This document shows, in pieces, positions 23,238-61,206 of a stretch of DNA of 64,000 nt (position 1 is the first letter of the stretch; each line of letters starts with the position of its first letter). Source of the DNA: Massilia sp. MS-15 (lineage in GTDB: Bacteria; Pseudomonadota; Gammaproteobacteria; Burkholderiales; Burkholderiaceae_D). The stretch spans positions 62,001 to 126,000 of the forward strand of contig NZ_JAIWIA010000027.1 of NCBI RefSeq assembly GCF_020176695.1, given 5' to 3'. Both the position numbers and the translations under genes were made by a program. The notes under the pieces were generated by a model. That model saw only the letters and a program-made list of their open reading frames with translations. It did no database searches and had not been told where the DNA came from.

Positions 23238-23346
23238 GCAGGGTGGGCGGCTATGCCGCCCACGCGGGAATGGTTTGCTCCAGCTAACTGCGCTGCGTCC
23301 ATGCGAAACGCTTGCCGAACGCGTGGGAGGGTGACCCGCCCACCCT
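23238..23346. repeat. REP-type inverted pair, copy A (degenerate heads)
   Basis: Left element 23238-23267 (GCAG head then GGTGGGCGGC / GCCGCCCACGCG), right element 23321-23346 in opposite orientation (GGAG head then GGTGGGCGG), about 55 bp between them. Lies between the VWA gene and the antiporter gene, ending 32 bp before the antiporter ATG. Confidence 0.8.
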
Positions 23347-23377
23347 CCGGCAAAGCGCCTAACAAGAGGGAAAAACG

Positions 23378-24580
23378 ATGCCCGATCTGCTTCCCATCCT
23401 CACCAGCCTCGCCTGGCCGATCGCGCTCGCGCTGGCCTGGCTGGCCGGTGAATTCGGCCAGCGCTGGACCGGCCTGCCGCGCATCAGTTTCTATGGACTG
23501 GCGGGCTTCGTGCTGGGCAGCGCGCAGATCGGCGTGCTGCCGGCGCCGGATGCAGGGCCGGTGGCCCTGCTGGCCGACATCGCCTTCGGCCTGATCCTGT
23601 TCGAGCTGGGCTACCGCTTCAACCTGCGCTGGCTGCGCCACAATCCCTGGCTGGGGGTGGCCGGGCTGGCCGAGAGCCTGCTGACCTTCGTACTGGTCTA
23701 CCTCGTGGCCGTGGCCTTCGGCAGCCCGCAGCTGATGGCGCTGATGATGGCGGCGCTGTCGATGGGCACCTCGCCCGCCACCGTCGTGCGCATCATCAAC
23801 GAGCAGCGCAGCTCGGGCCAGGTCACGGAACGGGTGCTGCACCTCACGGCCCAGAACTGCGTGCTGGCGGTGTTCGCCTTCAATGCCATCGTCGGCTTCT
23901 GGATCTTCCGCACCTTCGATGCGGTGGGCGAGGCGCTGTGGCAAAGCCTGGTGGGGCTGGCCGGGTCGGCCCTGGTCGGCGCCCTGTTCGGCATGGCCGT
24001 CCCGGCCCTGCTGCGCGCCATCCGCAACCCGCGCCGGGACGGCACGGTCGCCTTCGCGCTGGCCACCATGCTGCTGGTGGCCCTGTGCGATGCCGGTACC
24101 CTCTCGCCCTATATCGCCACGCTGGCTTTTGGGCTCACCGCGCGCCACCGGCGCGTCGCCTTCAGCCAGGCGCAGCGCAATTTCGGTCCGCTGGGCGAAG
24201 TGCTGACGGTGCTGCTGTTCGTGTACGCCGCCTCCACCCTCGACTGGCGCCAGGTCGCGGCCGGCGCCGCGCTGGCGCTGAGCGTGGTGCTGGTGCGCCA
24301 GCTCGCCAAGACCGGGGCCGTGACCGCCTTCGCCCACCTGTCGGGCGTCTCCTGGCGCAAGGGCGCGCTCACCGGGCTCGGGCTGGCGCCGCTGTCGGTG
24401 TTCGTGATCCTGCTGATCGAGCATGCGCGCCACGCCGGCGTGCACGTGGTGGAGGAACTGCGCGCCATGGCGGCGGTGACCATGCTGCTGGAAGTGTTCG
24501 GTCCCCTGATCATCCAGCGCACCCTGGTCTGGGCGCGCGAATCGTCGGCCAGTGCGCCGGAGGCTTCCCATGCCGCTTGA
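23378..24580 (+). CDS. Cation:proton antiporter (CPA family, Kef/NhaP-like)
   Basis: 400 residues. Twelve or so hydrophobic segments, with typical antiporter stretches [17 protein letters not shown] and [20 protein letters not shown]. There is no C-terminal RCK/TrkA nucleotide domain, so it is shorter than KefB/KefC. Ion specificity cannot be read. Its last 11 bp overlap the YbdK ligase gene, so the two are translationally linked. Confidence 0.85.
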
Positions 24581-25709
24581 CGCGTTTACTTCCTCGCAGC
24601 CGCTCACCTTCGGGGTCGAGCTGGAACTGCAGCTGGTCAGCCTGTCGGACTTCGACCTGACCGCGGCCAGCCCCGACCTGATGCACCTGCTCAAGCGCAA
24701 GCCCTTCCCCGGCAACGTGACGCCGGAGATCACCGAGAGCATGATCGAGATTAACTCGAGCGTGCACACGTCCTATGGCCCGCTGCTGGACGAGCTGCGC
24801 GAGATCCGCGACACCCTGGTGGCGGCCAGCGATGTGCTCAACATCGGCATCGCGGGCGGCGGCACCCATCCCTTCCAGCACTGGTCGGAACAGAAGATCT
24901 CGAGCAAGCCGCGCTACGAATACCTGTCGCAGCTGTACGGCTACCTGGCCAAGCAGTTCACCGTGTTCGGCCAGCACGTGCACATCGGCTGCGCCAACGG
25001 CGACGATGCGCTCTACCTGCTGCACGCGCTGAACCGCTACCTGCCCCACTTCATCGCGCTGTCCGCTTCTTCTCCCTTCGTGCAAGGGGTGGATTCCGGC
25101 TTCGATTCGGCGCGCCTGAATTCCGTATTCGCCTTCCCGATGAGCGGGCGCGCACCCTTCATGCTGACCTGGCAAGCCTTCACCGACGAGTATTTCGCGA
25201 AGATGGAGCGCACCCACATCATCAAGAGCATGAAGGACTTCTACTGGGACCTGCGGCCCAAGCCGGAATACGGCACCATCGAGCTGCGCGTGTGCGACAC
25301 TCCGCTCACGGTGGAACGGGCGGCGGCGCTGGCGGCCTACCTGCAGGCGCTGTGCCGCCACCTGCTGGCGCGCAGCGAGGAACCGCCGGCCGAGGACGAC
25401 TACCTGGTCTACAACTACAACCGCTTCCAGGCCTGCCGCTTCGGGCTGGAAGGCGCGCTCACCCATCCGAAGACCTACGACAGCGTCCCGCTGCGCGAGG
25501 ACATCCTGGCCACGCTCGAGAAGATGATGCCGCATGCGCAGGCGCTGGGCAGCGTCGAGGCCCTGCAGCACCTGGCGGCCGCGGCGGCCGACGGCAGCGA
25601 CGCCGCGCGCCTGCGCCGCTTCCATGAACGCGAAGGCAGCGTCGAAGGCATGGTCAATGCCGCGGTCCAGCTGTTCCGCGGCGAGCGCCGCATGCGTCCG
25701 GTGCGCTAG
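24570..25709 (+). CDS. YbdK-family carboxylate-amine ligase (GCS2 type)
   Basis: 379 residues. Family opening [12 protein letters not shown], then [23 protein letters not shown] and [13 protein letters not shown]. YbdK proteins have weak glutamate-cysteine ligase activity in vitro; their real substrate is not established. Start set at the ATG 24570, preceded by CGGAGG, which overlaps the antiporter stop by 11 bp. It converges on a class I amidotransferase-like gamma-glutamyl hydrolase with a 27-bp gap; a ligase and a hydrolase acting on gamma-glutamyl bonds side by side is suggestive but not proof of a pathway. Confidence 0.9.
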
Positions 25710-25736
25710 GCTGCCGCCTGCCGCATCGGCGCGGCA

Positions 25737-26738
25737 TTACAGCCGGGTTTCGCGCGCCGCGCGCAGGAACTCGTCCAGCACCGGCGTACAGTCGAGCAGC
25801 TCGGTGCCGCCGGCGCGGTGGAATTCCGGGTGCCATTGCAGGCCCATGACGAAGTCGGCCCGCTCGTAGCGGATCGCCTCGACGATGCCGTCGGGTTCGG
25901 AATAGGCCTCGATGCGGATGTCGCGCCCGACTTCCTTCACCGCCTGGTGGTGGATCGAATTCACGACCGGATGGCGCACGTCGCGGAACATCCTGCCCAG
26001 CGATGAACCCTCCGGAAAGCGGATCGCATGGCGATGCGCGTCGTAGATGTCGTGCACGTGGGCCAGCGCCTCCGGCACATTGGTGGCGACGTCCTGGTAC
26101 AGCGTGCCGCCGAAGGCGACGTTGATCAGCTGGCAGCCGCGGCACACGCCCAGCACCGGCTTGCCGGCATCGACGAACTCGTGCAGCAGCTCGAGTTCGT
26201 ACACGTCGCGCGCGCGGTCGCCGCTCCATTCGGGCCGGGTCGGCGCTTCGGAATAGGTTTGCGGCGCCACGTCCGCCCCGCCCTGCAGCACCAGCCCGTC
26301 GAGGTGGCGGGCGTAATGGCGCAGGGTGATGTTGCTGGGATGGAGCAGCCCGCTGGTGTTCACGGTCGGGATCATGAACACCAGCACGTCGCGCGACATC
26401 ACCCACTGGGCGATCGACTCTTCGAGGTATTGCAGGTTCTTGCTGAGCAGGCCGCGCGCACCCGGTTCGGGATGGAAGATGCGCGCCGATACCCCGATGT
26501 GCAGGGTGCGGTGCATGAAGTCGCGGTTGAAGCGTTCGCGCAGCGCGCGCCAGCGCGAACCCAGCACCCGCCCAGCCAGCGCCAGCGGCGTGTCGCCGTC
26601 GCGCTGGTAGCGGGCATGGCCGCGCATGGCCGGGCCCTCGGTGGCGCGCCGGTCAGGCACCCGCAACGGGGTGTCGGGACGCTTGCCGACCGGGGGACCG
26701 GGCACCTCGTCGGGGGGATGTCGTTCGTTTTCCGCCAT
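25737..26738 (-). CDS. Gamma-glutamyl-gamma-aminobutyrate hydrolase family (class I GATase-like)
   Basis: 333 residues. Class I glutamine amidotransferase fold: nucleophile Cys in LGVCRGCQLINVAFGG and catalytic His in GLQWHPEF. Family members (PuuD type) cut gamma-glutamyl amides. A polar N-terminal extension of about 90 residues precedes the catalytic domain and contains no obvious motif. Start taken at ATG 26738 (MAENERHPPDE); an alternative 21 codons upstream lacks a good ribosome site. A near-consensus SOS box lies about 105 bp upstream of this start; this is the only gene downstream of it on the minus strand. Confidence 0.85.
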   Translation of the reverse strand: MAENERHPPDEVPGPPVGKRPDTPLRVPDRRATEGPAMRGHARYQRDGDTPLALAGRVLGSRWRALRERFNRDFMHRTLHIGVSARIFHPEPGARGLLSKNLQYLEESIAQWVMSRDVLVFMIPTVNTSGLLHPSNITLRHYARHLDGLVLQGGADVAPQTYSEAPTRPEWSGDRARDVYELELLHEFVDAGKPVLGVCRGCQLINVAFGGTLYQDVATNVPEALAHVHDIYDAHRHAIRFPEGSSLGRMFRDVRHPVVNSIHHQAVKEVGRDIRIEAYSEPDGIVEAIRYERADFVMGLQWHPEFHRAGGTELLDCTPVLDEFLRAARETRL

Positions 26739-26843
26739 GTCGCCAATATAGCCCGGCTGCGTGCGCGCACGATTCGGCCTTGTTACAAAATCCCCGCGCA
26801 TGCTGCCACGGTGTCAACTTGCGGGGTTTGGATTTTTAGTGAA

Positions 26844-26863
26844 TACTGTATGCAATTACAGTA
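26844..26863. promoter_or_regulatory. Near-consensus LexA (SOS) box
   Basis: TACTGTAT-GCAA-TTACAGTA, matching the E. coli SOS consensus TACTGTATATATATACAGTA at 16 of 20 positions, including both CTGT/ACAG half-sites. It is embedded in a longer perfect inverted repeat (GAATACTGTA and TACAGTATTC, 26841-26866). It lies 12 bp beyond the stop of the pseudo-receiver gene and about 105 bp upstream of the GATase-like gene. There is no T tract on either strand, so a terminator is unlikely. Confidence 0.65.
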
Positions 26864-26875
26864 TTCTTGTTGGGA

Positions 26876-27748
26876 CTAGTGCGGCAGCGCCAGCAGTTTT
26901 TCGAAGGTCGCCAGCAGGTGACGGTCGGCCACCGGCTTGTCGAGCAGGCCGCGCACGCCGGCATCGCGGGCGCGCAGGCTGTCGTACTTGAACGACAGCC
27001 CGACGAGAAACAGGACAGCGGTACGGCCCGCACCCTCCTGCGACTTGATGGCGCTGCTCAGGCTGTACGGTTCGATGCCGGGCGCGCAGGTATTGATCAT
27101 GACCAGCGATACCGGCGTTTCGTCGCACAGGCGCACGGCGGCGCGGCTGCTGTCGGTCCACTCGACGGGCCGCTCGATGCAGGAGGGGCTGGCGATGCCG
27201 GCGGCGCTTCCCAGCTTGCCGCTGACGACGCGCGCCACGTGGTCGCGGAAGGCGCCACCCTTGTCGATGATGAGCACGGCGCCGTCGGGTGGTCCCTGGC
27301 GCAGGTGATGGTAATAGGCTGGCGGCTCGGTATCCGGCGCCAGCCTCGGCCTTCGCCGGCGTTCCGGCAGGCTGTGTTCGCCGCGTGCGGCCAGCACCGC
27401 CAGCGCCTGCACGCGGGCGTCGAGCAGTTCGGCCAGGGCATCGAACAGGCGGGCGGGATCGACCGGACGTGGCAGGCTGCGGCGTCCGTGTTCGCCGGCG
27501 CCGCGGTCGCCGCCGATGAGGAGGATGGGCTGCAGGGCGCCGGGCGGCAGGCAGGACAGGCGTGCCAGCGCGGCCGCGTTGCCGCCGTCGGCGATATACA
27601 GGTCGGGTTCTTGCAAACTGTCGTCGTGCAGGCAAAAATACGACGGCCCCGACGAGGGGGCATGCGCCAGCAGGCTTTCCAGTGCGGCGCATTCAGCCGG
27701 CGCGAACCCGACCAGGCGGATGGTGAACGGATATCTGGGTGCGTGCAT
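26876..27748 (-). CDS. Protein with two degenerate receiver-like domains
   Basis: 290 residues. Two response-regulator-like folds appear in series. N-terminal unit (about 5-110): FTIRLVGFAPAECAALESLL, then DLYIADGGN, then a degenerate SLPRPVDPARLFDAL where a Lys-Pro is expected. C-terminal unit (about 165-288): VLIIDKGGAFRDHVARVV, LVMINTCAPGIEPY in which the phospho-acceptor Asp is replaced by Asn, LFLVGLS, and a preserved Lys-Pro in GLLDKPVADRHLL. An Arg/Pro-rich linker joins them. No output domain is seen. It probably cannot be phosphorylated in the second unit; a protein-interaction role is inferred. Start chosen at ATG 27748 behind AGGAAAGGCGGG; a GTG at 27784 and an ATG at 27772 are possible. 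Confidence 0.65.
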   Translation of the reverse strand: MHAPRYPFTIRLVGFAPAECAALESLLAHAPSSGPSYFCLHDDSLQEPDLYIADGGNAAALARLSCLPPGALQPILLIGGDRGAGEHGRRSLPRPVDPARLFDALAELLDARVQALAVLAARGEHSLPERRRRPRLAPDTEPPAYYHHLRQGPPDGAVLIIDKGGAFRDHVARVVSGKLGSAAGIASPSCIERPVEWTDSSRAAVRLCDETPVSLVMINTCAPGIEPYSLSSAIKSQEGAGRTAVLFLVGLSFKYDSLRARDAGVRGLLDKPVADRHLLATFEKLLALPH

Positions 27749-27899
27749 TGCTGTTCCCGCCTTTCCTGACATCTCCCAGGCCACATCGTTTTAATCTAAC
27801 ACAATGGTCTGTACTAACAAGCACATTTGGCTTTGAAAACGCCAATGTTTTCCGCGTGACAAGATAGAATGCGCAAGCATTGAATTAACGAACCTCAGC

Positions 27900-29897
<1,998 letters not shown>

Positions 29898-29928
29898 GCG
29901 CGCGCCTACCGAACAGAACGAATAGATC

Positions 29929-32264
<2,336 letters not shown>

Positions 32265-32268
<4 letters not shown>

Positions 32269-32398
32269 GGTGGGCGGGGTAATTTCGGGCAATGCCCGGA
32301 ATTACGAACGCCCACGCGGTGATCGTTAGCGAATGAACCACCGCACAGGCTGATCTTGCGTAGCTTGACCGCGTGGGCGGCAAAGCCGCCCACCCTAC
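32265..32398. repeat. REP-type inverted pair, copy B
   Basis: Starts GTAGGGTGGGCGG at 32265 and ends CCGCCCACCCTAC at 32398. The right element is the simple form (CGCGTGGGCGGC, loop AAA, GCCGCCCACC). The left one carries an extra nested hairpin (GTAATTTCGGGC / GCCCGGAATTAC) between its arms. The GTAG head contains the parC stop codon. Confidence 0.9.
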
Positions 32399-32405
32399 GA
32401 GAATA

Positions 32406-32432
32406 AAAACGCCGGCGCGAAGCCGGCGTTTT
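32406..32432. terminator. Bidirectional terminator after parC
   Basis: AAAACGCCGGC / GCCGGCGTTTT, 11-bp stem with a 5-nt loop, between parC and the convergent Ala/Lys-rich gene. Confidence 0.88.
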
Positions 32433-32447
32433 CATTTGTAGCGTTGC

Positions 32448-32945
32448 TTAGTGCTTCGCCGCCGCCTTTTGCACCTCGGCCGTCGCCTCGGCGCGCACCT
32501 GGTCGGTCTTGGCCGCCGCGGTGGCCTTGTCGGCCGCCGCCTCGACTTGCGTCTTGAGCAGCTTCTCGTCGGCCTTGATCATCTTCTTGTCGGCCTTCAG
32601 CTTCGCATCGGCGATCTTTTCCTCGGCCTTGGCCACCGCCTTGGCGCGGTCTTCCGGATCGGCCTTGGCGACCTTCTCGACCGCGTCGGCGTGGGCCTCG
32701 GCTGCCTTGTCATACGCCTTGTCCTTTTTCTCGGTGGCGTCGGCCACGGCCTTGTTCACCTTCTTGTCGGCCTTTTCGGCGACCTTCATTTCCTTCTGTT
32801 CAGCCTTGGCGATGTCCTTCGTCGCCTCGGCCTCGGCCTTCACGACCGCCTTGGTGGTGGCGGCGCTGTTGGCTCCGGTGGTGGTCTGGGCGTGGGCGGC
32901 GGTGGCCAGCAGGCCGGCGATCAGGGTGGCGAGCAGTTTGTTCAT
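32448..32945 (-). CDS. Exported Ala/Lys-rich coiled-coil-like protein
   Basis: 165 residues. Signal peptide MNKLLATLIAGLLATAAHA, cut before QTTT. The mature chain is made almost entirely of Ala, Lys, Glu and Asp (for example KAEAEATKDIAKAEQKEMKVAEKADKK) with few aromatics, no Cys and almost no Gly or Pro, so one long charged helix or coiled coil is expected. Function unknown; similar low-complexity periplasmic proteins occur in Burkholderiales. Start chosen for its signal peptide and the Shine-Dalgarno GGAAAGGAAACACC; another Met 23 codons upstream would bury the signal. Confidence 0.7.
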   Translation of the reverse strand: MNKLLATLIAGLLATAAHAQTTTGANSAATTKAVVKAEAEATKDIAKAEQKEMKVAEKADKKVNKAVADATEKKDKAYDKAAEAHADAVEKVAKADPEDRAKAVAKAEEKIADAKLKADKKMIKADEKLLKTQVEAAADKATAAAKTDQVRAEATAEVQKAAAKH

Positions 32946-33092
32946 GGTGTTTCCTTTCCGGTGAGTGGTCGCGCTGGCGGTCTGCGCTGCCTGCGCTGTG
33001 TTGTTGTTTGCCATGGGTCCAGAATACGGACTCCCCCACTCCCGGGTCTGTTAGCCAACCCACTTAGAAAGTTATCGTTTTGTAAGCAAATC

Positions 33093-34511: not shown

Positions 34512-34631
34512 GTCGTCCTCGTTCGATGCGAAAACGGCATTGTAGAACGGCTGCCGGATTGTCAGGCATGCCAGTTGTATTCAGCGCAGGAGCAACCTAG
34601 AATCGTCCGGGTAGCGATACATGGAGACGCC

Positions 34632-35675: not shown

Positions 35676-35679
35676 AGGC

Positions 35680-49928: not shown

Positions 49929-49930
49929 GC

Positions 49931-50722: not shown

Positions 50723-50749
50723 GGGGTCTCCGTATTCTTGTTGTCGGGC

Positions 50750-51826: not shown

Positions 51827-51842
51827 CGGTCTCGGGGTGCCT

Positions 51843-52355
51843 TCAATGGCACTTGAAATAATCGAAAGGCTCGCGGCAGTCGAGGCACTTGTACAGGGCC
51901 TTGCAGGGCGTCGAGCCGAACTCGCTGGTGGGCTGGGTATGGGTGGAACCGCAGTGCGGGCAGGCCACGACCGGCGCCGGGCGGCGCCGGATGCCGGCAT
52001 GCAGGCCGCTGATGTCGATCACCTGCTGGGCGGGCGGCGCGATGCCGTAGCTGGTCAAGGCGGCCTTGCCGGCCTCGCTCATCCAGTCGGTGGTCCAGGC
52101 CGGCGACAGGCGGCTGGCGATGCGCACGTCCCGCAAGCCGTGCGACAGCAAGGCTTGCTTCACCGCGTCGGCGATCACCCCCATCGCCGGGCAGCCGGAA
52201 TACGTCGGCGTGATCGTCACCACACAGGTGCCGCCTTCGAACGCGACCTCGCGCACGATGCCGAGGTCCACCACCGAGATCACCGGGATCTCCGGATCGG
52301 CGACTTCGCCCAGCCAGTCCCAGACCTGCCCGGTGGTGATGCCGGCCGCGTTCAT
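51843..52355 (-). CDS. paaD: PaaD, epoxidase maturation protein
   Basis: 170 residues. MIP18/DUF59-type domain with the conserved TPTYSGCPAMGVI motif, plus a C-terminal Cys4 ribbon (CPHCGSTHTQ ... CLDC). PaaD is needed for an active epoxidase, probably for Fe-S insertion into PaaE. The start overlaps the paaC stop by one base (TAATG). Confidence 0.93.
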   Translation of the reverse strand: MNAAGITTGQVWDWLGEVADPEIPVISVVDLGIVREVAFEGGTCVVTITPTYSGCPAMGVIADAVKQALLSHGLRDVRIASRLSPAWTTDWMSEAGKAALTSYGIAPPAQQVIDISGLHAGIRRRPAPVVACPHCGSTHTQPTSEFGSTPCKALYKCLDCREPFDYFKCH

Positions 52356-53119
52356 TACCACTGCGCTCCCGGGTAGGCGCGCTGCAGGAACTGCATCTCG
52401 GCCAGGATGTAGCCGAGGCGCTCGCTGTGGCGTCCCTGCTTGCCGCCGCGCTGCATCCAGGCGTCCGGCGAAGGCATCGACAGCGTCGCTTCGGCGAAGA
52501 CTTCCGCCATGTGCCCGAAGCAGGCCTGGCGCAGCGCATCGGCGGCCGGGGCCACGCCCTGCGCCACCATGGCCTCGTCGACGGCGTCGTAGAGGAACAT
52601 CTCGCCGCTGTACATCCACAGCTCGTCCAGCGCCGCCTGCATCCTGGCGCGGCTGGCCTCGGTGCCGTCGCCCAGGCGCACCACCAGGTCGCCGGAACGG
52701 CGCAGGTGGTAGGTCACTTCCTTGATCGACTTCTGCGCGATCTCGGCGATGCGCGCGTCCTTGGCCCGGGCCAGGCCGTCCATCAGGAAGTAGTGCCAGG
52801 TATCGAACAGGAACTGGCGCACCATGACCTCGGCATAGCTGCCGTTGGGCTGCTCGACCAGCAGGCAGTTGCGGTACTCATGGGCATCGCGGTGGAAGGC
52901 CAGGCGGTCTTCGTCGCGGCCACGGCCTTCCAGCTCGCCGGCATAGGTGAGCCACATGCGGGTCTGGCCCAGCAGGTCGAGGGCGACGTTGGACAGGGCC
53001 ATGTCTTCTTCCAGGGCCGGTCCCTTGCCGACCAGCTGGCACAGCTGCTGGGACAGGATCAGGGCGTTGTCGCCCTGGCGCAGCAGGTACTCGATCTTTG
53101 CGTCCACAGCGGTACTCAC
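52355..53119 (-). CDS. paaC: Phenylacetyl-CoA epoxidase subunit PaaC
   Basis: 254 residues. Ferritin-like helical structural subunit paired with PaaA: LILSQQLCQLVGKGPALEEDMALSN, FLFDTWHYFLMDGLA and KEVTYHLRRSGDLVVRLGDG. It overlaps paaB by 4 bp. Confidence 0.95.
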   Translation of the reverse strand: MSTAVDAKIEYLLRQGDNALILSQQLCQLVGKGPALEEDMALSNVALDLLGQTRMWLTYAGELEGRGRDEDRLAFHRDAHEYRNCLLVEQPNGSYAEVMVRQFLFDTWHYFLMDGLARAKDARIAEIAQKSIKEVTYHLRRSGDLVVRLGDGTEASRARMQAALDELWMYSGEMFLYDAVDEAMVAQGVAPAADALRQACFGHMAEVFAEATLSMPSPDAWMQRGGKQGRHSERLGYILAEMQFLQRAYPGAQW

Positions 53120-53400
53120 AGGTTCTTGACTTCTTCCGGCATCGGGAAGAAGGTCGGGTGGCGGTAGACCTTGCTGTTGGCCGGCTCGAACAGCGCTTCC
53201 TTGTCGTTCGGGCTGCTGGCCACGATGTCCTGGGCGCGCACGACCCAGATCGATACGCCTTCATTGCGGCGGGTGTAGACATCGCGCGCGTTGTTGACCG
53301 CCATTTCGGCGTCAGGGGCGTGCAGGCTGCCGACGTGCTTGTGGGCCAGTCCGTGCTGGCTGCGGATGAAGACTTCCCACAGGGGCCATTCTTTGCTCAT
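53116..53400 (-). CDS. paaB: Phenylacetyl-CoA epoxidase subunit PaaB
   Basis: 94 residues. Small bridging subunit: WPLWEVFIRSQHGLAHKHVGS, then ALEEA-like helix MAVNNARDVYTRRNEG and FFPMPEEVKNL at the end. It is separated from paaA by 81 bp that contain a REP-type element, the only large gap in the operon. Confidence 0.95.
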   Translation of the reverse strand: MSKEWPLWEVFIRSQHGLAHKHVGSLHAPDAEMAVNNARDVYTRRNEGVSIWVVRAQDIVASSPNDKEALFEPANSKVYRHPTFFPMPEEVKNL

Positions 53401-53447
53401 TCTGTTCTCCGTGTATTTCTTATGGACGAGTGATGCTGAAGCAGGTT

Positions 53448-53479
53448 GAACGCGTGGGCGGGAGACCCGCCCACCCTAC
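53448..53479. repeat. Single REP-type element, copy D, inside the paa operon
   Basis: Read on the minus strand: GTAGGGTGGGCGG, loop GTCT, CCGCCCACGCG, TTC. The stem is near-perfect. Its head starts 2 bp after the paaA stop codon and it points away from paaA, in the paaA-paaB spacer. Confidence 0.9.
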
Positions 53480-53481
53480 GA

Positions 53482-54471
53482 TCAAGCAGCGGCCTTGCGG
53501 GCGGCCTGCTTGTCGGCGTGGGCGACCAGGGCGTCGCGGAACCATGCGCCGTCTTCGTAGGCCTTCACGCGGGTGCGCAGGCGCTCGCGGTTGCAGGGGC
53601 CGTTGCCCTTCAGGACGTTGTGGAACTCGCTCCAGTCGATCTCGCCGAAATCGTAGGAGCCGCGCGCTTCGTTCCATTTCAGGTCGGGATCGGGGATGGT
53701 CAGGCCCAGGTATTCGGCCTGCGGCACGGTCTGGTCGACCATGCGCTGGCGCAGCTCGTCGTTCGAGAACAGCTTGATGCGCCAGGCGGTGGACTGGGCG
53801 CTGTTGACCGATTCGGCATCCGACGGGCCGAACATCATCAGGGACGGCCACCACCAGCGGTTCAGCGCATCCTGGGCCATCGCCTTCTGCTCAGGCGTGC
53901 CCCTGGCCAGCGCCATCATGATGTCGTAGCCCTGGCGCGCGTGGAAGGACTCTTCCTTGCAGACGCGCACCATGGCGCGCGCGTACGGACCGTAGGAGCA
54001 GCGGCACAGCGGGATCTGGTTGATGATGGCCGAGCCGTCGACCAGCCAGCCGATGGCGCCCATGTCGGCCCAGCTCAGGGTCGGGTAATTGAAGATGCTC
54101 GAATACTTCGCCTTGCCGGCGTGCAGGGCCTGCAGCAGCTCGTCGCGCGACACGCCCAGCGTTTCGGCGGCGCTGTACAGGTAGAGGCCATGGCCGGCCT
54201 CGTCCTGGATCTTGGCCAGCAGCACCGACTTGCGCTGCAGGGTCGGGGCGCGCGTGACCCAGTTCCCTTCCGGGAGCTGGCCCACGATCTCGCTGTGCGC
54301 GTGCTGCGAGATCTGGCGGATCAGGGTCTTGCGATAGGCCTCGGGCATCCAGTCCTTGGGCTCGATCTTGATGCCGGCGTCGATGCGCGCCTGGAACGCC
54401 GCTTCCTCGGCGCTCATGTCTTCCTCGGTACGAACTTTCTTGAGTCCGGTCTCCACCATTTGTGCGTACAT
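53482..54471 (-). CDS. paaA: Phenylacetyl-CoA epoxidase catalytic subunit PaaA
   Basis: 329 residues. Ferritin-like di-iron monooxygenase subunit that epoxidises the CoA-activated ring. Iron ligands in [14 protein letters not shown] and [16 protein letters not shown]. First gene of the operon. Start at 54471 ([13 protein letters not shown]) behind CGGAGACC; the frame is open upstream but that part reads through the promoter. Confidence 0.96.
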
Positions 54472-54502
54472 GTCTGGTCTCCGTTGCAAACCTACTGAAT
54501 CC

Positions 54503-54552
54503 ATAATACGATACAAAAAATCGGATGTACACCAAAATTTTGAATCATATTG
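54503..54552 (-). promoter_or_regulatory. paaA promoter and probable PaaX operator
   Basis: Minus strand: -35-like TGTACA (54526-54531), 17-bp spacer, -10 TATTAT (54503-54508), about 25 nt from the paaA ATG. Just upstream is AATATGATTC followed by AAAATTTTGG (within 54533-54552); the TGATTC core is what I recall for PaaX operators in E. coli and Pseudomonas. The site also lies just before the divergent paaX start, so it could control both genes. Confidence 0.5.
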
Positions 54553-54565
54553 AGAAGATGGCGCC

Positions 54566-55504
54566 ATGACAATTCCTACCAGCGGTACGACGAGTGGCGA
54601 GTGGGTCGCCGGCTACCTGGCCACCGATCCGCCGCGCCATAAATCGCTGGTGATGACCCTGTGCGGGGACGCCATCGCCCCGCATGGCGGCGCCTTCTGG
54701 CTGGGCAGCATGATCGAGCTGCTGGGCCCGCTGGGGGTGTCCGACCGCCTGGTGCGCACCAGCGTGTTCCGCCTGGTGCAGGACGGCTGGCTGGTGGCCA
54801 GCCGCGAGGGCCGGCGCAGCCGCTACGCGCTGGAACCGGCGTCGCTGCCGCGCCTGGCGCGCGCCAACCGCCGCATCTATTCCCCCCCCAGGCTGGACTG
54901 GGACGGCCGCTGGACCTTCGTGCTGGCGCCCAGCGGCAGCATCGACGGCGAGCTGCGCGCGCAGCTGCGCAAGGAGCTCGAATGGGAGGGCTTCGCGATG
55001 CTGGCCACCGGCGTGATGGCGCATCCGGCGCCGGCGCCGGATACGCTGCGCGACATCGTGGCGCGCAGCGGCGCGGCCGGCAGGGTGTACGCGTGCACGG
55101 CGGCCGAGCTGCCCGGCGTCGGGGCGCGTCCGCTGCCCGATCTGGTGGGTGATGGCTGGGACCTGTCGGCCGTGGCCGCGGCCTACCGCCAGTTCATCGC
55201 CCGCTTCACGCCGTTGCTGGCGCTGCTGGAAGCGGACACCCTGCTCGCCCCCCAGGATGCCTTCGCGATCCGCAGCCTGCTGATCCATGCCTACCGCCGC
55301 GTGCAGCTGCATGATCCGATGCTGCCGGTGGCGCTGCTGCCCCAGCCCTGGCCCGGCACCGACGCCTATGCGCTGGCCAGGCGCATCTACCTGCTGACCT
55401 GGGCGCGCGCCGAGGAGCACGTGCTGGCCATGCTGCGCAGGGAAGACGACACGACGGCGCCGGCCGATGGCGATTTCTACCGGCGCTTCGGCGGACTGGC
55501 GTGA
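54566..55504 (+). CDS. paaX: Phenylacetate operon repressor PaaX
   Basis: 312 residues. N-terminal winged helix ([50 protein letters not shown]), then the PaaX central and C-terminal domains ([28 protein letters not shown]). PaaX is a GntR-like repressor released by phenylacetyl-CoA. It is divergent from paaA with 94 bp between the starts. A second ATG at 54558 is out of frame. Confidence 0.93.
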
Positions 55505-55572
55505 AATCCGGCGGCGCCGCGGAAAACTAGTATGATCACCATTTTCCGCATTTTCCAGACGACAGGATACCC

Positions 55573-56718
55573 ATGTCTATCAAGATCAGCAGCCAGTTCG
55601 ACGCTGGCGCCATCGAGGTCGTGAACGCTACCAGCGCGAACGCCATCGACCTGAACATCCGCAAGGACTCGCACGCCGATATCGTCCAGTGGTTCTACTT
55701 CCGCCTGCAGGGCGCGCAAGGCCAGGCCTGCAGCATCCGCTTCCTGAATGCGGGCCAGGCCGCCTATCCGGCCGGCTGGGAAGGCTACCAGGCGATGGCG
55801 AGCTACGACCGCGTGAACTGGTTCCGCGTGCCGACCTCCTACGACGGCCAGGTGATGACGATCGAGCACACCCCGGGCATGGACAGCGTCTACTACGCCT
55901 ATTTCGAGCCGTATTCGTGGGAACGGCACCTGGAGCTGCTCGACCGCGCCCAGATGTCCGAGCACGTGCGCATGCTGGACCTCGGCTCCACCGTCGACGG
56001 CCGCGACCTGAACATGCTGGTGATCGGCGAACCCGCGCCTGAAAAGAAGAAGGTGTGGGTGATCGCACGCCAGCACCCGGGCGAGACCATGGCCGAGTGG
56101 TTCGTCGAAGGCATGCTCGACGCCCTGCTCGACCCGGCCCACCCGTTCGGGCGCCAGTTATTGAATGAGTCGGTGTTCTACGTGGTGCCGAACATGAACC
56201 CGGACGGCTCGGTGCGCGGCAACCTGCGCACCAACGCGGCCGGCGCCAACCTGAACCGCGAGTGGATGAACCCGTCGATGGAGCGCAGCCCGGAAGTGTT
56301 CCTGGTGCTCCAGAAGATGCATGAGACGGGCGTCGACCTGTGCCTGGACGTGCACGGTGACGAGGGCCTGCCCTACGTGTTCGTGGCCGGCAGCGAATCG
56401 CTCCCGACCTGGACCGAGGCCCAGGCGGCGCAGCAGAAGCGCTTCATCGAGGACTTCAAGATCGCCAGCCCGGACTTCCAGGACGTGCACGGCTACGGCG
56501 CCACGCCCTTCACCGACGAGACCCTGACCATGGGTTCGTCGCACGTCACGCACGCCTTCGGCTGTCTGTCGCTGACGCTGGAGCTGCCGTTCAAGGACAA
56601 TGCCAACGACCCCGACCCGCAGGTGGGCTGGGACGGCGCCCGCAGCGCGCGCCTCGGCGCCGCGGTGCTGCAGCCGGTGCTGAACGCCGTGCGCGCACTG
56701 GGCGCGCAGCAGGAGTAA
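55573..56718 (+). CDS. M14 carboxypeptidase, cytosolic carboxypeptidase-like
   Basis: 381 residues, no signal peptide. An N-terminal beta domain typical of cytosolic carboxypeptidases (YFRLQGAQGQACSIRFLN) precedes the M14 domain: zinc ligands in RQHPGETMAEWF and DVHGDEGLPY, substrate Arg in GANLNREWM, and catalytic Glu in LTLELPFKDN. Bacterial members are thought to trim peptides; the substrate is unknown. Confidence 0.92.
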   Translation: MSIKISSQFDAGAIEVVNATSANAIDLNIRKDSHADIVQWFYFRLQGAQGQACSIRFLNAGQAAYPAGWEGYQAMASYDRVNWFRVPTSYDGQVMTIEHTPGMDSVYYAYFEPYSWERHLELLDRAQMSEHVRMLDLGSTVDGRDLNMLVIGEPAPEKKKVWVIARQHPGETMAEWFVEGMLDALLDPAHPFGRQLLNESVFYVVPNMNPDGSVRGNLRTNAAGANLNREWMNPSMERSPEVFLVLQKMHETGVDLCLDVHGDEGLPYVFVAGSESLPTWTEAQAAQQKRFIEDFKIASPDFQDVHGYGATPFTDETLTMGSSHVTHAFGCLSLTLELPFKDNANDPDPQVGWDGARSARLGAAVLQPVLNAVRALGAQQE

Positions 56719-56721
56719 GCG

Positions 56722-56958
56722 ATGAGCGTGTTCTCCGCGCCGGTGTTCGACGCCACCGTGGTGTTCGAAGGCCAGGAACTGTTCAAGGGCCGCGGAGCGG
56801 CCCAGACCTGGGCGGAAAAGGTGGCCAGGGAGCTGGAAACCCCGGTGGCGGTCGAGAAGATCGGCACCGGCTGGGCCCTGACGGCCACCCTCGACGGCGC
56901 GCCGGTGGCCTGGGGCATCTACGGCCAGCGCCTGAGCAGGATCGAGCAGGCCCGCTGA
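56722..56958 (+). CDS. Hypothetical protein, 78 residues
   Basis: Starts 3 bp after the carboxypeptidase stop and is almost certainly cotranscribed. Sequence MSVFSAPVFDATVVFEGQEL then a helix (AAQTWAEKVARELE) and two strands (GTGWALTATLDGAPVAWG). Soluble, no membrane segment, no motif I recognise. A REP pair begins 5 bp after its stop. Confidence 0.6.
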   Translation: MSVFSAPVFDATVVFEGQELFKGRGAAQTWAEKVARELETPVAVEKIGTGWALTATLDGAPVAWGIYGQRLSRIEQAR

Positions 56959-56963
56959 ATCCC

Positions 56964-57134
56964 GTAGGGTGGGCGGCTCCATCCGGTACGCCGCATTGCC
57001 TGCAGTGGATGCGCCGCCCACGCGTTCGGCCAGCGTGGAAGCGGACGTCACGCCTGTTCATGCGCGAGTTGAACGCGTGGGCGGCGCCAGCATCCGTTGC
57101 CACGCACGTTCCACGGTGAAGCCGCCCACCCTAC
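56964..57134. repeat. REP-type inverted pair, copy E (long loops)
   Basis: Begins GTAGGGTGGGCGGC at 56964 and ends GCCGCCCACCCTAC at 57134, with inner arms CCGCCCACGCGTTC and GTTGAACGCGTGGGCGG. Each half has a loop of about 35 bases instead of 3-4. The right-hand head (read on the minus strand) contains the TAG stop of the DUF1801 gene. Confidence 0.9.
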
Positions 57135-57547
57135 GGGTAGCGTGCCCGCGTCGCGGCGGCCGCCTCGGCCACCATCTGTTCCAGCACCCCCACATCCACG
57201 TCGTCCAGCTTGCGCACATACAGGCAGGCCTTGCCCATCTTGTGCCGCCCCAGGCGCGCGCGCAGCGCGTCGCTCGGCGGCAGCTCGCAGGACAGGTAGA
57301 TGCTGATGTCGCCCTTGCGCGACGAGAAGCCGGCCAGCGGCGCATCGCCTTCGCGCCCGCTGGCGTAGGTGTAGTGGTAGCTGTCGAAGCCGACGATGCC
57401 CGCGCCCCACATCACGGGCGGGGCGCCGGTCACGCGGCACATCATGTCGACCAGTGCCTCGCAATCCGCGCGCCGCGCGGCGTCGGGAATCGCATCGAGG
57501 TAGGCGCGCACGCTCGCCTCGGTGGGGAGCGTCTTGTTCGCGGCCAT
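57131..57547 (-). CDS. DUF1801 family protein
   Basis: 138 residues. Family marks: GFDSYHYTYASGREGDAPLAGFSSRKGDISIYL and RHKMGKACLYVRKLDDVD. YdhG-like fold related to MmcQ/YjbR; function unknown. Start at 57547 (MAANKTLPTEASVRAYL). The stop codon TAG lies in the GTAG head of REP copy E. Confidence 0.82.
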   Translation of the reverse strand: MAANKTLPTEASVRAYLDAIPDAARRADCEALVDMMCRVTGAPPVMWGAGIVGFDSYHYTYASGREGDAPLAGFSSRKGDISIYLSCELPPSDALRARLGRHKMGKACLYVRKLDDVDVGVLEQMVAEAAAATRARYP

Positions 57548-57554
57548 GGCGGCC

Positions 57555-57794
57555 TCAGAGTTCGGCGCCCAGGTGCTTGCCGACCCAGGCATGGGCATCC
57601 TCGAGCGAATCGAAATGCAGGGTCGCGATGGTGGTCTTGTCGGGCGCCAGGAAGGTGGCGTAGGCCTTGCGCGCCTCGTTGCCCGAACTGAGCAGGTCCG
57701 AGGGCTGGGACAGCTCGACGGTGGCCACCAGGTCGAGGTTCAGCAGCACGCTTTTCTGGCTGTTTTCCTTGTCGATGCGAACGAACTTGCTCAT
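57555..57794 (-). CDS. Hypothetical protein, 79 residues
   Basis: MSKFVRIDKENSQKSVLLNLDLV start, then beta-rich middle and a C-terminal helix (LHFDSLEDAHAWVGKHLG). Soluble; I do not recognise a family. It sits 14 bp after pmbA and 7 bp before the DUF1801 gene on the same strand, with AAAGGGGAACACGGC upstream as a ribosome site, so it is probably part of that operon. Confidence 0.6.
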   Translation of the reverse strand: MSKFVRIDKENSQKSVLLNLDLVATVELSQPSDLLSSGNEARKAYATFLAPDKTTIATLHFDSLEDAHAWVGKHLGAEL

Positions 57795-57808
57795 GCCGTG
57801 TTCCCCTT

Positions 57809-59161
57809 TCAGCTGCCGGCGACGACCATCTTCTCGATCAGGATCGAGCCGGTCGACTTGTTGCCGCGGTTCAGGACGTCGTTGCCGATGCCCGCGATCT
57901 GCTGGAACATCTCGCGCATGTTGCCGGCGATGGTGATCTCTTCCACCGGATACTGGATCACGCCATTCTCGACCCAGTAGCCGGATGCGCCGCGCGAATA
58001 GTCGCCGGTGACGTAGTTGACGCCCTGCCCCATCAGTTCCGTGACCAGCAGGCCCGTGCCCATCTTGCGCAGCATGCCTTCGAAGTCGTCGGCGCGGCGG
58101 GTCTGCGAGGACACCAGCTCCAGGTTGTGCGAGCCGCCCGCGTTGCCGGTGGTCTGCATGCCCAGCTTGCGCGCCGAGTACGAAGACAGGAAGTACCCCT
58201 GCAGCACGCCGTTCTCGACCACCTTGCGGCGCACCGTGCGCACGCCCTCTTCGTCGAAAGGCGCGGAGCCGACCGCGCCCACCAGGTGCGGATCCTCGAC
58301 CACGCTGATGTGCTCCGGGAACACCTGCTTGCCGAGCGTATCGAGCAGGAAGGTCGACTTGCGGTACAGCGCACCGCCCGACACGGCCTGCGCGAAGGCG
58401 CCCAGCAGGCCCGCCGCCAGCGGCGCCTCGAACAACACCGGGCAGGTGCGGGTATCGAGCTTGCGCGCGTTCAGGCGCGCCAGCGCGCGTTCGGCGGCGT
58501 AGCGGCCCACGGCTTCCGGCCTGGCCAGCTTCTTCGGATCGCGCGCCGAGGTGTACCAGTCGTCGCGCTGCATCTTGCTGCCCTTGCCGGCGATCGGGGC
58601 GACCGAGATCGTGTGGCGCGAGAACGGATAGCCGCCGATGAAGCCGCGCGAATTGGCGCCGACGAAATGCGACTGCTGCACGTAGACGCTGGCGCCTTCG
58701 CTGTTGGTGATGCGCGGGTCGACCTCGAACGCCGCGTTCTCGCAGCGCTGCGCCAGTTCGACCGCTTCCTCGGTCGAGATCTGCCACGGATAGAACAGGC
58801 GCAGGTCGCGCGGGTTCGTTTCCAGCAGCTCGGCGTCGGGCAGGCCGGCGCAATCGTCTTCGGCGGTGAAGCGGGCGATGTTCCAGGCCGCTTCCACGGT
58901 GTCCTTCAGCGACCTGGTCGAGAAGTCGGAGGTATTCGCATTGCCGCGCCGCTGGCCATAGTAGACGGTAACGCCGATGCCCTTGTCGCGGTTCTGCTCG
59001 ATGGTCTCGATCTTGCCTTTACGCACAGAAACCGACAGGCCGCTGCCTTCGCTGATCTCGACCGACGCATCGGTGGCGCCCTGCTCCCTGGCAAAGGCCA
59101 GCACGTCGCGGGCGAGCTGTTTCAGCTGGTCCTGGGTATGGGTAAAAGCGGAGTCGTTCAT
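57809..59161 (-). CDS. pmbA: TldE/PmbA metalloprotease
   Basis: 450 residues, the E. coli length. PmbA-type features: ASVEISEGSGLSVSVRKGKIETIEQNRD near the start, VGAVGSAPFDEEGVRTVRRKVV in the middle, and NYVTGDYSRGASGYWVENG near the end. With TldD it forms a protease that processes modified peptides and CcdA-type antitoxins. tldD is not in the window. Divergent from darP across 94 bp, the common arrangement. Confidence 0.94.
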   Translation of the reverse strand: MNDSAFTHTQDQLKQLARDVLAFAREQGATDASVEISEGSGLSVSVRKGKIETIEQNRDKGIGVTVYYGQRRGNANTSDFSTRSLKDTVEAAWNIARFTAEDDCAGLPDAELLETNPRDLRLFYPWQISTEEAVELAQRCENAAFEVDPRITNSEGASVYVQQSHFVGANSRGFIGGYPFSRHTISVAPIAGKGSKMQRDDWYTSARDPKKLARPEAVGRYAAERALARLNARKLDTRTCPVLFEAPLAAGLLGAFAQAVSGGALYRKSTFLLDTLGKQVFPEHISVVEDPHLVGAVGSAPFDEEGVRTVRRKVVENGVLQGYFLSSYSARKLGMQTTGNAGGSHNLELVSSQTRRADDFEGMLRKMGTGLLVTELMGQGVNYVTGDYSRGASGYWVENGVIQYPVEEITIAGNMREMFQQIAGIGNDVLNRGNKSTGSILIEKMVVAGS

Positions 59162-59255
59162 GTCGTGTTTGTCGTGGCGGGCCCTAAAACAGTTATCATA
59201 GCAGCCGTTTACAGTTTTCACTGATCGGCCCAGCGCCAATCGGATCATCCTCATC

Positions 59256-59855
59256 ATGCCTAATCCAAACCGCGGTTCCGTCGGCTTCCAGTCCAATGAA
59301 TTCGACCAGGAATACGAACGCCCCTCCAAGTCCGAAGCCAAGCGCCAGTCGAACGAGCTGCAGAAGCTCGGCGAGCAGCTGGTCGATGCGCCGCGCGACC
59401 GCGTCAAGCGCGTCGAGATGCCGGAAGACGTCAAGGAAGCCATTCTTGCCTGCCAGACCATCACCAACCACGAAGGCCGCCGCCGCGCGCTGCAGTTCGT
59501 GGGCAAGAAGATGCGCACGCTGGACGAGGAAGAAGTCGCCGTCATCCAGCGCACCATCGACAGCTGGAAAGGCGCCTCGAAAGCCGAGACCGCCGCGCTG
59601 CACGCCCTCGAGCGCCGCCGCGAGAAGCTGCTGGCCGACGACAAGGCCCTGACCCAGCTGCTGGAAGAAAACCCGGAACTGGACGTGCAGCACCTGCGCA
59701 CCCTGATCCGCAACGCGCGCAAGGAACAGGCGGAGAACAAGCCGCCCAAGGCCTACCGCGAGATCTTCCAGATCCTGAAGGACCTGGGCAAGAAGCCGAA
59801 GCAGAGCGACGACGATCAGGAAGAATCCGGCGATGACGAGTCCGACGACGAGTGA
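59256..59855 (+). CDS. darP: Ribosome biogenesis factor DarP (YjgA, DUF615)
   Basis: 199 residues, highly charged. RPSKSEAKRQSNELQKLGEQL and LRTLIRNARKEQAENKPPKAYREIFQILKDL are typical of YjgA, which binds 50S precursors. The acidic tail (SDDDQEESGDDESDDE) overlaps mogA by 23 bp. Confidence 0.9.
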   Translation: MPNPNRGSVGFQSNEFDQEYERPSKSEAKRQSNELQKLGEQLVDAPRDRVKRVEMPEDVKEAILACQTITNHEGRRRALQFVGKKMRTLDEEEVAVIQRTIDSWKGASKAETAALHALERRREKLLADDKALTQLLEENPELDVQHLRTLIRNARKEQAENKPPKAYREIFQILKDLGKKPKQSDDDQEESGDDESDDE

Positions 59856-60495
59856 CGTGGCACTGGCGCATCCAGCGCTGACGCAGCAAGAATTGATCAT
59901 CGGCCTGGTGTCGGTCTCGGACCGCGCCAGCGGCGGCGTCTATGAAGACAAGGGCATTCCCGCCCTGACCGACTGGCTGGCGCAGGCGATCACCACCCCC
60001 TACCGGATCGAGACCCGCCTGATTCCCGACGAGCGCGCGGAGATCGAGCGCACCCTGGCCGAACTGGTCGACGTGGCGCGCTGCCACCTGGTCCTGACCA
60101 CCGGCGGTACCGGCCCGGCGCGGCGCGACGTCACGCCCGAGGCTACGCTTGCCATCGGCACCCGCGAAATGCCGGGCTTCGGCGAACAGATGCGCCAGAT
60201 CAGCCTGCGCTTCGTGCCGACCGCGATCCTGTCGCGCCAGACCGCGGTGATCCGCGAGGTACGCATCGACGGCGCCGATCACGCGGCCCTGGTCATGAAC
60301 CTGCCGGGCCAGCCCAAGTCGATCAAGGAAACCCTGGAAGGCCTGAAGGACGATGCCGGCAACGTGCTTGTCGGCGGCATCTTCGCGGCCGTGCCCTACT
60401 GCATCGACCTGATCGGGGGCCCCTACATCGAAACCAATCCGGCAGTGAGCAAGACCTTCCGCCCGAAATCGGCGCTGCGTCCGCCTGCCGCCTGA
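59833..60495 (+). CDS. mogA: Molybdopterin adenylyltransferase
   Basis: 220 residues. MoCF fold: IGLVSVSDRASGGVYEDKGIPAL, LVLTTGGTGPARRDVTPEA, GFGEQMRQISL and NLPGQPKSIKETL. It adenylates molybdopterin before Mo insertion. The start overlaps the darP 3' end by 23 bp; no nearer in-frame Met exists. Confidence 0.93.
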   Translation: MTSPTTSDVALAHPALTQQELIIGLVSVSDRASGGVYEDKGIPALTDWLAQAITTPYRIETRLIPDERAEIERTLAELVDVARCHLVLTTGGTGPARRDVTPEATLAIGTREMPGFGEQMRQISLRFVPTAILSRQTAVIREVRIDGADHAALVMNLPGQPKSIKETLEGLKDDAGNVLVGGIFAAVPYCIDLIGGPYIETNPAVSKTFRPKSALRPPAA

Positions 60496-60517
60496 CGCCT
60501 GACGCACAAAGGAAGCC

Positions 60518-61183
60518 ATGGAACTGCTGCAAAACATCGAGATCGAAACCGCGCCGAACCCGCAGGTGGCCGTGATCTGGCTGCACGGCCTGGGCGCCGA
60601 CGGCAACGATTTCGTGCCGCTGGTGAACGAACTGGACCTGTCCGGCCTGCCCGGCATCCGTTTCGTGTTCCCGCATGCGAAGACGATGCCGATCACGATC
60701 AACGGCGGCTACGTGATGCGCGCCTGGTACGACATCAGCGGCGCCGAACTGACCCGGCGCGAGGACGAAGGCGGCCTGCGCGCCTCGCAGCGCGACGTGG
60801 AAGCCCTGATCGCGCGCGAAAAGGCGCGCGGCATCCCGGCCTCGCGCATCATCCTGGCCGGCTTCTCGCAGGGCTGCGCCATGACCCTGCAGACCGGCAT
60901 GCGCCATCCGGAAAAACTGGCCGGCATGCTGTGCCTGTCGGGTTACCTGCCGCTGGCCGGCGCGGTCGCCAGCGAGCGCACCGAAGAAAGCCTGGCCACG
61001 CCGGTCTTCATGGCCCACGGCACCCACGACAATGTCGTGCCCTTCGCGCGTGCGCGCGAGTCGAAGGAGGCGCTGCTGGCGCTGGGCTACAAGGTGGAAT
61101 GGCACGAGTACCCCATGCAGCACGCGCTGTGCCTGGAAGAGGTGCGGGATATCTCGGCCTGGATCAGGAAGGTGCTGGCCTAG
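60518..61183 (+). CDS. Carboxylesterase/phospholipase family (alpha/beta hydrolase)
   Basis: 221 residues. VAVIWLHGLGADGNDFVPLV oxyanion region, nucleophile Ser in LAGFSQGCAMT, acid in MAHGTHDNVVPF and His in YPMQHALCLEE. This is the EstB/lysophospholipase-like carboxylesterase group; no signal peptide, so cytosolic. The TAG stop is the start of a palindrome that looks like a variant REP. Confidence 0.9.
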   Translation: MELLQNIEIETAPNPQVAVIWLHGLGADGNDFVPLVNELDLSGLPGIRFVFPHAKTMPITINGGYVMRAWYDISGAELTRREDEGGLRASQRDVEALIAREKARGIPASRIILAGFSQGCAMTLQTGMRHPEKLAGMLCLSGYLPLAGAVASERTEESLATPVFMAHGTHDNVVPFARARESKEALLALGYKVEWHEYPMQHALCLEEVRDISAWIRKVLA

Positions 61184-61206
61184 GGCGGACGGCGTCGCCG
61201 TCCACC
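61180..61206. repeat. Variant single REP-like palindrome, copy F
   Basis: CTAGGGCGGACGGC, loop GTC, GCCGTCCACC. Against the main REP (TAGGGTGGGCGGC and GCCGCCCAC) one stem base pair is changed on both arms together (GGGC to GGAC and GCCC to GTCC), so pairing is kept. It contains the esterase stop codon and lies between two convergent genes. Confidence 0.55.

What the first reader, a model, noticed from the sequence alone, without database searches (positions are those of the whole stretch)
23238..61206. A GTAG-headed REP/REPIN family, with genes whose stop codon lies in the repeat head
Six intergenic sites (23238, 32265, 39710, 53448, 56964, 61180) share the head GTAGGGTGGGCGG and tail CCGCCCACGCG(TTCAAC), four of them as inverted pairs. 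A 5' GTAG followed by a stem is the hallmark of REP sequences moved by REP-associated tyrosine transposases (RAYT); paired forms are known as REPINs. At argH, paaA and the 78-residue gene the head begins 2-5 bases after the stop. At parC and the DUF1801 gene the TAG of GTAG is the stop codon itself, and at the esterase and rsgA the same holds for a CTAG variant. Insertion at gene ends that supplies the stop codon would be a neat way to be harmless.
Basis: partly seen in the sequence, partly recalled or inferred. Interest (0 to 1): 0.7.

Follow-up and report, generated by a model that had tools for sequence, protein, structure and literature searches.

The report
Mobile DNA hairpins supplying stop codons
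A family of short mobile DNA hairpins in this bacterium (genus Massilia) often sits so exactly at the end of a gene that its own first letters serve as the gene's stop signal; this is a clear, counted case of something already reported briefly for related repeats in other bacteria.

Summary
The repeat family is real. The exact 13-base head occurs 137 times in the genome; the pattern read backwards occurs 0 times. It is a GTAG-type REP, often paired as a REPIN. A REP transposase (RAYT) gene lies between two inverted copies and passes NCBI's REP-transposase model. RAYT sequence and repeat stem co-vary across Massilia; 21 of 23 genomes without that RAYT clade have fewer than 10 heads.

The stop-codon claim holds. 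Of 102 heads examined (35 not fetched), 81 face a gene's stop; in 19 of 81 the TAG of GTAG is that stop. None lies inside a called gene, and no called gene reads into a repeat in another frame. Relatives without a recognised repeat mostly end at or near the same codon in TAA or TGA (30 of 34; TAG no commoner than background). So the repeat replaces the stop, mostly with little change to the protein. In Pseudomonas composti it is rarer, 3 of 42.

Di Nocera 2013 already says GTAG REP termini often provide the TAG stop; Nunvar 2013 describes repeat switching at orthologous RAYTs. This is a well-documented new member of a known kind.

The parts
32265..32398 (.). REPIN: inverted pair of exact heads (32265-32277 +, 32386-32398 -); its left GTAG holds the parC stop
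   Evidence: folds as ssDNA with z -7.25
32266..32268 (+). TAG stop of parC, inside GTAG
   Evidence: of five relatives with no recognised repeat four end 1-4 residues earlier and one 2 residues later, in TGA or TAA
29929..32268 (+). parC (topoisomerase IV subunit A)
   Evidence: PF00521, E 1e-136
56964..57134 (.). REPIN: exact heads 56964-56976 (+) and 57122-57134 (-), long loops
57131..57133 (-). TAG stop of the DUF1801 gene, inside GTAG
   Evidence: five relatives end 1-4 residues later, four in TAA/TGA without a recognised repeat and G041 on its own repeat-like TAG
57131..57547 (-). DUF1801 gene, 138 aa
   Evidence: PF08818, E 9.9e-11
   Evidence: spacer alignment in nine genomes
23238..23348 (.). 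REPIN with mutated heads (GCAG and GGAG), 57 bases after the TAG of gene 22011-23180; a repeat sits at the identical distance in three relatives, two of them with a different stem
61180..61206 (+). decayed REP (CTAGGGCGGACGG...CCGTCCACC) whose TAG is the stop of gene 60518-61183
   Evidence: relatives G014 and G026 carry GTAG heads there, G001 ends in TAA
56722..56958 (+). 78-residue gene, TGA 5 bases before the head at 56964

Best explanation
The sites are members of a GTAG-type REP/REPIN family: non-autonomous hairpin elements mobilised by a genomic RAYT (REP-associated tyrosine transposase, a Y1/HuH enzyme). In Massilia the RAYT gene is itself usually bracketed by two inverted copies, in 14 of 30 loci between moeA and rmuC. 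Shown here: the family, its matching RAYT, RAYT-stem co-variation, concentration at gene 3' ends and near absence from divergent spacers, and replacement of native TAA/TGA stops by the TAG of GTAG, mostly with little change in protein length. Inferred: RAYT recognises GTAG plus hairpin on single-stranded DNA and inserts copies; copies that break genes or promoters are purged. At a gene end only two outcomes are harmless: landing after the stop, or landing so that GTAG reads NNG-TAG in frame, for example between bases 2 and 3 of the last codon. A repeat just behind a stop can also take over later if the native stop is lost. A REPIN shows GTAG outward at both ends, so it can end two convergent genes at once.
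For: 137 heads against 0 reversed. RAYT bracketed by inverted heads; NF047646 'REP-associated tyrosine transposase' at 190 bits, cut-off 80. 5' and 3' stems agree (8 of 9 bases or better) in 67 of 74 RAYT loci that have both; Mantel rho 0.55 in 28 Massilia loci, 0 of 2000 permutations. RAYT clade (>=118 bits, cut chosen at the gap) in 38 of 61 genomes, median 47.5 heads; absent in 23, median 4. d=-4 in 19 of 81 stop-facing heads, none inside called genes, none read into; in eight relatives 12 of 64. Gene-caller-free test: open frames of >=150 codons upstream in 32, 16 and 15 of 102 heads, the first being the TAG frame. Spacer classes conv 38, uni 38, div 1 of 78 sites (one unassigned) against 71, 394 and 66 spacers. 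Stop swap in orthologous groups. At paaA the native A-TAA-GAA seems still visible 3' of the inserted repeat in G000 (read from the alignment).
Against: No transposition was observed and no close strain pair with an empty site was available. The base before GTAG is a pyrimidine in 89 of 102 heads but less often in the stop-donating ones (13 of 19 against 76 of 83, p 0.014), so those may partly arise another way. paaA has d=2 in G000 and G046 but d=-4 in G053 and G008 at what looks like one ancestral insertion, so small later indels matter. G041 has 124 heads but no RAYT of this clade, while G004, G018 and G029 have the RAYT and no exact head (other stems were not counted). A second, more distant RAYT relative occurs in most of these genomes, G000 included, so the clade split is not RAYT against none. 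Three genes of G047, a genome with no exact head, end in GTAG without a repeat, so a pre-existing TAG cannot be excluded at single sites. 'Repeat-free' means no head found by pattern.
Confidence: 0.85

Rival explanations
1. RAYT targets existing TAG or GTAG stop codons, so the repeat adopts a stop that was already there.
For: G047 ends three such genes in GTAG without a repeat, and G001 ends the 441-aa gene in TAG without one.
Against: Members without a recognised repeat in the -4 groups end in TAG in 4 of 34, against 143 of 913 background genes (p 0.81). Upstream of heads the commonest base is a pyrimidine, mostly C.
Confidence: 0.08
2. Takeover: repeats land just behind stops and those whose TAG is in frame replace the native stop after it is lost by mutation or small deletion.
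For: Orthologous repeats at d=2 and d=-4 at paaA; at -1, 1 and 2 at the 148-aa gene. parC in G000 is 1-4 residues longer than in seven of eight relatives. In-frame positions behind the stop (d mod 3 = 2) hold 11 of 25 heads at d 0-14 in the syntenic set (orthologues not independent).
Against: Most -4 groups have the length of relatives without the repeat, and at paaA the displaced native stop appears 3' of the repeat. Takeover by substitution should lengthen the protein. In G000's own heads in-frame positions hold 7 of 19 at d 0-14, no excess.
Confidence: 0.3
3. The repeats are conserved RNA elements (terminators or 3' stabilisers) kept by function, not mobile DNA.
For: 3'-end location; sites co-occupied in relatives (100 orthologous pairs against 19 expected).
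Against: The four bases after GTAGGGTGG differ in 70 of those 100 pairs; exact head counts vary from 0 to 326 among 61 genomes; RAYT with matching flanking repeats. No run of T directly follows the window hairpins (by eye).
Confidence: 0.1

Closest known systems
GTAG-tagged REP super-family (Di Nocera et al. 2013, PMC3733652; abstract and passages seen)
   Same: GTAG foot plus hairpin, dimers, location between convergent and unidirectional genes close to 3' ends; the paper says GTAG REP termini often provide the TAG stop of flanking ORFs.
   Different: Its main text holds no 'Massilia' and no 'GGTGGGC'; its figures, where the consensus sequences are, are not held, so the stem may be there. The stop effect is counted here with orthologue comparison, which the passages seen do not give.
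RAYT / TnpA-REP with cognate REPs (Nunvar 2010 PMC2817692, Nunvar 2013 PMC3686654; passages seen)
   Same: RAYT gene flanked by its REPs; different REP classes flank orthologous syntenic RAYTs ('orthogroups', 'orthoswitch').
   Different: Here the neighbouring genes moeA and rmuC often end in the RAYT's own repeats.
REPIN (Bertels and Rainey 2011, PMC3116915; passages seen)
   Same: Inverted REP doublet predicted to form one long hairpin.
   Different: Pair sizes 84-179 bp; several loops carry a second palindrome.
SMAG repeats of Stenotrophomonas maltophilia (named in a passage of PMC3733652; the 2010 paper itself not seen)
   Same: GTAG head; Stenotrophomonas REPs are RAYT-linked (PMC2817692, passages).
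   Different: Different stems; a different bacterial order (recalled).

Membership tests
GTAG-type REP | 5' GTAG followed by a short palindrome | tested here: met
   hairpin fold z -4.4 for the 53479 site
GTAG-type REP | high copy number, intergenic | tested here: met
   137 exact heads; 0 of 102 examined inside called genes
REPIN | two REPs in inverted orientation forming one hairpin | tested here: met
   22 head-out pairs of exact heads among 78 sites, 84-179 bp; fold z -7.25 for the parC pair
RAYT (TnpA-REP) | Y1/HuH transposase of the REP-associated group | tested here: met
   NF047646 190 bits, cut-off 80; PF01797
RAYT (TnpA-REP) | gene flanked by its cognate REPs, with RAYT-REP co-evolution | tested here: met
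   22 of 30 Massilia loci with a palindromic GTAG head on both sides (my count, leaving out one head that lies inside a gene); 53 of 80 wider loci; Mantel test
RAYT (TnpA-REP) | cleaves cognate REP single strands | not testable with these tools
   known for E. coli, Stenotrophomonas and Marinomonas enzymes (PMC8266576, passages)
REP that supplies a stop codon (Di Nocera 2013) | TAG of GTAG in frame as the stop of the flanking gene | tested here: met
   19 of 81 stop-facing heads

The most novel reading that the evidence does not exclude
REPINs are a standing engine of stop-codon turnover in Massilia. Insertion between bases 2 and 3 of a last codon swaps TAA or TGA for TAG without touching the protein. 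The site then persists while its stem is rewritten to match the resident RAYT, and at moeA-RAYT-rmuC the transposase's own recognition sites are the stop codons of its two neighbours.
Probability: 0.3. Interest if true: 0.55.

Novelty: new member of a known kind. Interest (0 to 1): 0.36.

Why it matters
It gives numbers to a one-sentence remark in the literature: about a quarter of the stop-facing repeats examined are the stop codon, with none read into, and orthologues show the swap. That makes Massilia a good system for asking how REPs choose sites, and whether a hairpin starting at the stop codon slows translation termination, as reported for E. coli REPs within 15 nt of a stop (cited in PMC12306157, passages seen). 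It also warns annotators that C-termini and stop usage in such genomes are partly set by mobile DNA.

Tried and rejected
Retention test: if a stop-donating repeat cannot be lost, orthologues should share it more often. They do not: 49 of 112 (0.44) for d=-4/-1 against 82 of 172 (0.48) for d 0-8, 31 of 72 for d 9-25 and 38 of 125 for d 26 and more. The 'locked in place' idea is not supported.

Pre-existing TAG as target: rejected on orthologue stop usage.

Generality at RAYT flanks outside Massilia: 103 heads, open frames of >=100 codons upstream in 6, 7 and 4 by frame (TAG frame first), so no excess there; Massilia 11, 4 and 3 of 19. In P. composti 3 of 42, lower than G000 (p 0.027).

A frame bias among repeats just behind the stop (d mod 3 = 2) was not clear: 7 of 19 in G000 and 11 of 25 in the syntenic set, which includes G000's 8 heads, at d 0-14.

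The other two Y1 transposases: the C52 one also passes NF047646 (143 bits), but the repeat pair near it lies inside a separate TIR element and no cognate repeat was identified; the C46 one has no exact head in its stretch.

Literature: a search for Massilia with 'repetitive extragenic palindromic' gave 6 papers whose listed titles and abstracts do not describe REP families in Massilia (papers not opened); this says nothing about papers outside the held library.
Full report
What is there. The window (67% G+C) is part of a 4.5-Mb genome of the genus Massilia. The genus follows from named hits: relative G007 has a contig of the length of Massilia sp. 9I, NZ_LR733275.1. The head GTAGGGTGGGCGG occurs 137 times (64 forward, 73 reverse) and the reversed pattern 0 times. 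Inside the window six heads are exact. The unit is GTAG, a 9-base arm GGTGGGCGG, a variable loop, and CCGCCCACGCG. In the window and fetched stretches 22 of 78 sites are head-out pairs of 84-179 bp, 54 are single exact heads (a decayed partner would be missed) and 2 are tail-out pairs. The pair at parC folds as ssDNA with z -7.25.

The mover. A search with PF01797 finds three Y1 transposases in the genome. The one on contig C66 lies between two inverted heads and matches NCBI's REP-associated tyrosine transposase model at 190 bits, cut-off 80. Of 30 RAYT loci of the genus, 22 have GTAG palindromes on both sides (my count, leaving out one head that lies inside a gene). Of 80 loci from many phyla, 53 have them on both sides and 72 on at least one. 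Pooling these 110 loci, stems on the two sides agree in 67 of 74 with both, and stem distance follows RAYT distance (28 Massilia loci: rho 0.55, 0 of 2000 permutations; 96 loci: rho 0.39, 0 of 500). Among 61 genomes head count follows presence of this RAYT clade: median 47.5 in 38 with it (>=118 bits), 4 in 23 without; 9 of 38 against 21 of 23 have fewer than 10 heads (from; relatedness of genomes not corrected). Exceptions: G041 with 124 heads and G021 with 20 and no such RAYT; G004, G018 and G029 with the RAYT and no exact head. A more distant RAYT relative is found in most of the genomes, G000 included.

Distance to stops. With a Markov gene caller written here, 102 heads in the window and fetched stretches were placed; 35 of the 137 were not fetched. 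81 face a stop, 21 a start, none lies inside a called gene. d is the number of bases between the stop codon and the G of GTAG. It is -4, meaning the TAG of GTAG is the stop, in 19 of 81. No other negative value occurs, and 9 lie at 0-5. Uniform placement in the same spacers (80 of the 81) predicts 3.6 heads at d<=5 (maximum 14 of 5000 runs) against 28 seen. Without the caller, a frame open for >=150 codons upstream is found in 32, 16 and 15 of 102 heads for the TAG frame and the other two. In nine syntenic stretches, found with a shorter 9-mer head, 15 of 72 stop-facing heads are at -4 and 2 at -1; leaving out G000, 12 of 64 and 2. Of the 19 proteins, 18 have Pfam families, among them ParC, DUF1801, Maf, an S41 peptidase, 5-FTHF cyclo-ligase, MoeA and RmuC. 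Repeats avoid divergent spacers: 38 convergent, 38 unidirectional, 1 divergent, 1 unassigned of 78.

Orthologues. For window genes and syntenic stretches of 95-144 kb in eight relatives, repeat-terminated proteins mostly have the length of orthologues without a recognised repeat. A 109-aa gene of G000 ends at the same residue in six such relatives with TGA or TAA. A 441-aa gene ends on TAG of GTAG in five genomes and at the same residue with TAG, TGA and TAA in three without. paaA ends on GTAG in G053 and G008 one residue before the TAA of four relatives. parC in G000 is 1-4 residues longer than in seven of eight relatives and 2 shorter than in one; the DUF1801 protein is 1-4 shorter than in five. 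In groups with a -4 member, 34 members without a recognised repeat end in TAA 19, TGA 11, TAG 4; background TGA 494, TAA 276, TAG 143. Single searches agree: an RluE-like gene ends on a GTAG head at or within a few residues of the same place in five of ten relatives, or six counting a variant head; the cyclo-ligase gene in four of ten and maf in two of ten, counting variant heads.

How it arises. The paaA spacer alignment suggests the repeat lies between GC and A-TAA-GAA of the last codon and native stop, with ATAAGAA still readable behind the repeat in G000. An insertion there gives GC+G TAG: the same protein and a new stop. The same locus has d=2 in G000 and G046, so small indels later shift the junction. 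At the 148-aa gene, d is -1, 1 or 2 in different species. The base before GTAG is C or T in 89 of 102 heads, which may be the insertion or cleavage preference; TnpA-REP enzymes cut at CT, one also at CA (PMC8266576, passages). I take selection on roughly random gene-end insertions, with some later takeover, as the most likely cause of the spike. A special targeting of stop codons is not needed.

Site persistence and stem change. Orthologous genes both carry a repeat within about 60 bases of the stop in 100 pairs against 19 expected, and the four bases after GTAGGGTGG differ in 70 of them (pairs are not independent). At one gene the repeat sits exactly 57 bases behind the stop in four species with two stem types. 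In 14 of 30 RAYT loci the flanking genes moeA and rmuC are both recognised, and both end in TAG of the RAYT's own repeats in three of them: G000, L131 and L150. Persistence is not greater for stop-donating repeats than for those just behind the stop (0.44 against 0.48).

Known or new. Di Nocera et al. [quoted passage not shown] Nunvar 2013 describes different REP classes at orthologous RAYTs and possible partial replacement after an 'orthoswitch' (PMC3686654, passages). The present case is a new, well-resolved member, with the counts and orthologue tests added. In P. composti, which has a related RAYT, only 3 of 42 stop-facing heads are stops, and at RAYT flanks outside Massilia there is no excess.

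Noticed in passing
L025, L030, L031, L035, L055, L064 (genome stretches around REPINs): REPINs or single heads of this family sit inside a larger element with terminal inverted repeats TAATGCCGTTCAGTTAAG or ATGCCAGTCAGTGAAGG and 9-11 bp direct flanking repeats (flanks read by eye; 20 TIR matches at up to 2 mismatches genome-wide against 1 for the control). The TIR resembles IS4 ends as I recall them: a repeat pair travelling in a second kind of mobile element.
   Followed up: partly
L021, L025, L029, L031, L055, L060; relatives G001 and G046: Several repeats carry a second palindrome (core TCCA-S-TGGA, or GGGCAATGCCC) in the loop, or replacing one arm, making a palindrome within a palindrome.
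   Followed up: no
G041 (Massilia species): 124 exact heads but no RAYT of this clade found: possibly a recent RAYT loss.
   Followed up: no
L305, L333, L347 (G047): A genome with no exact head ends three genes in GTAG where other species have the repeat's TAG; lost repeats or chance.
   Followed up: no
L076, about 3600-4900: Another Y1 transposase gene (C46) lies between flanks with repeated 'GGGTCAGAGT'-like motifs and no exact GTAG head of this family.
   Followed up: no
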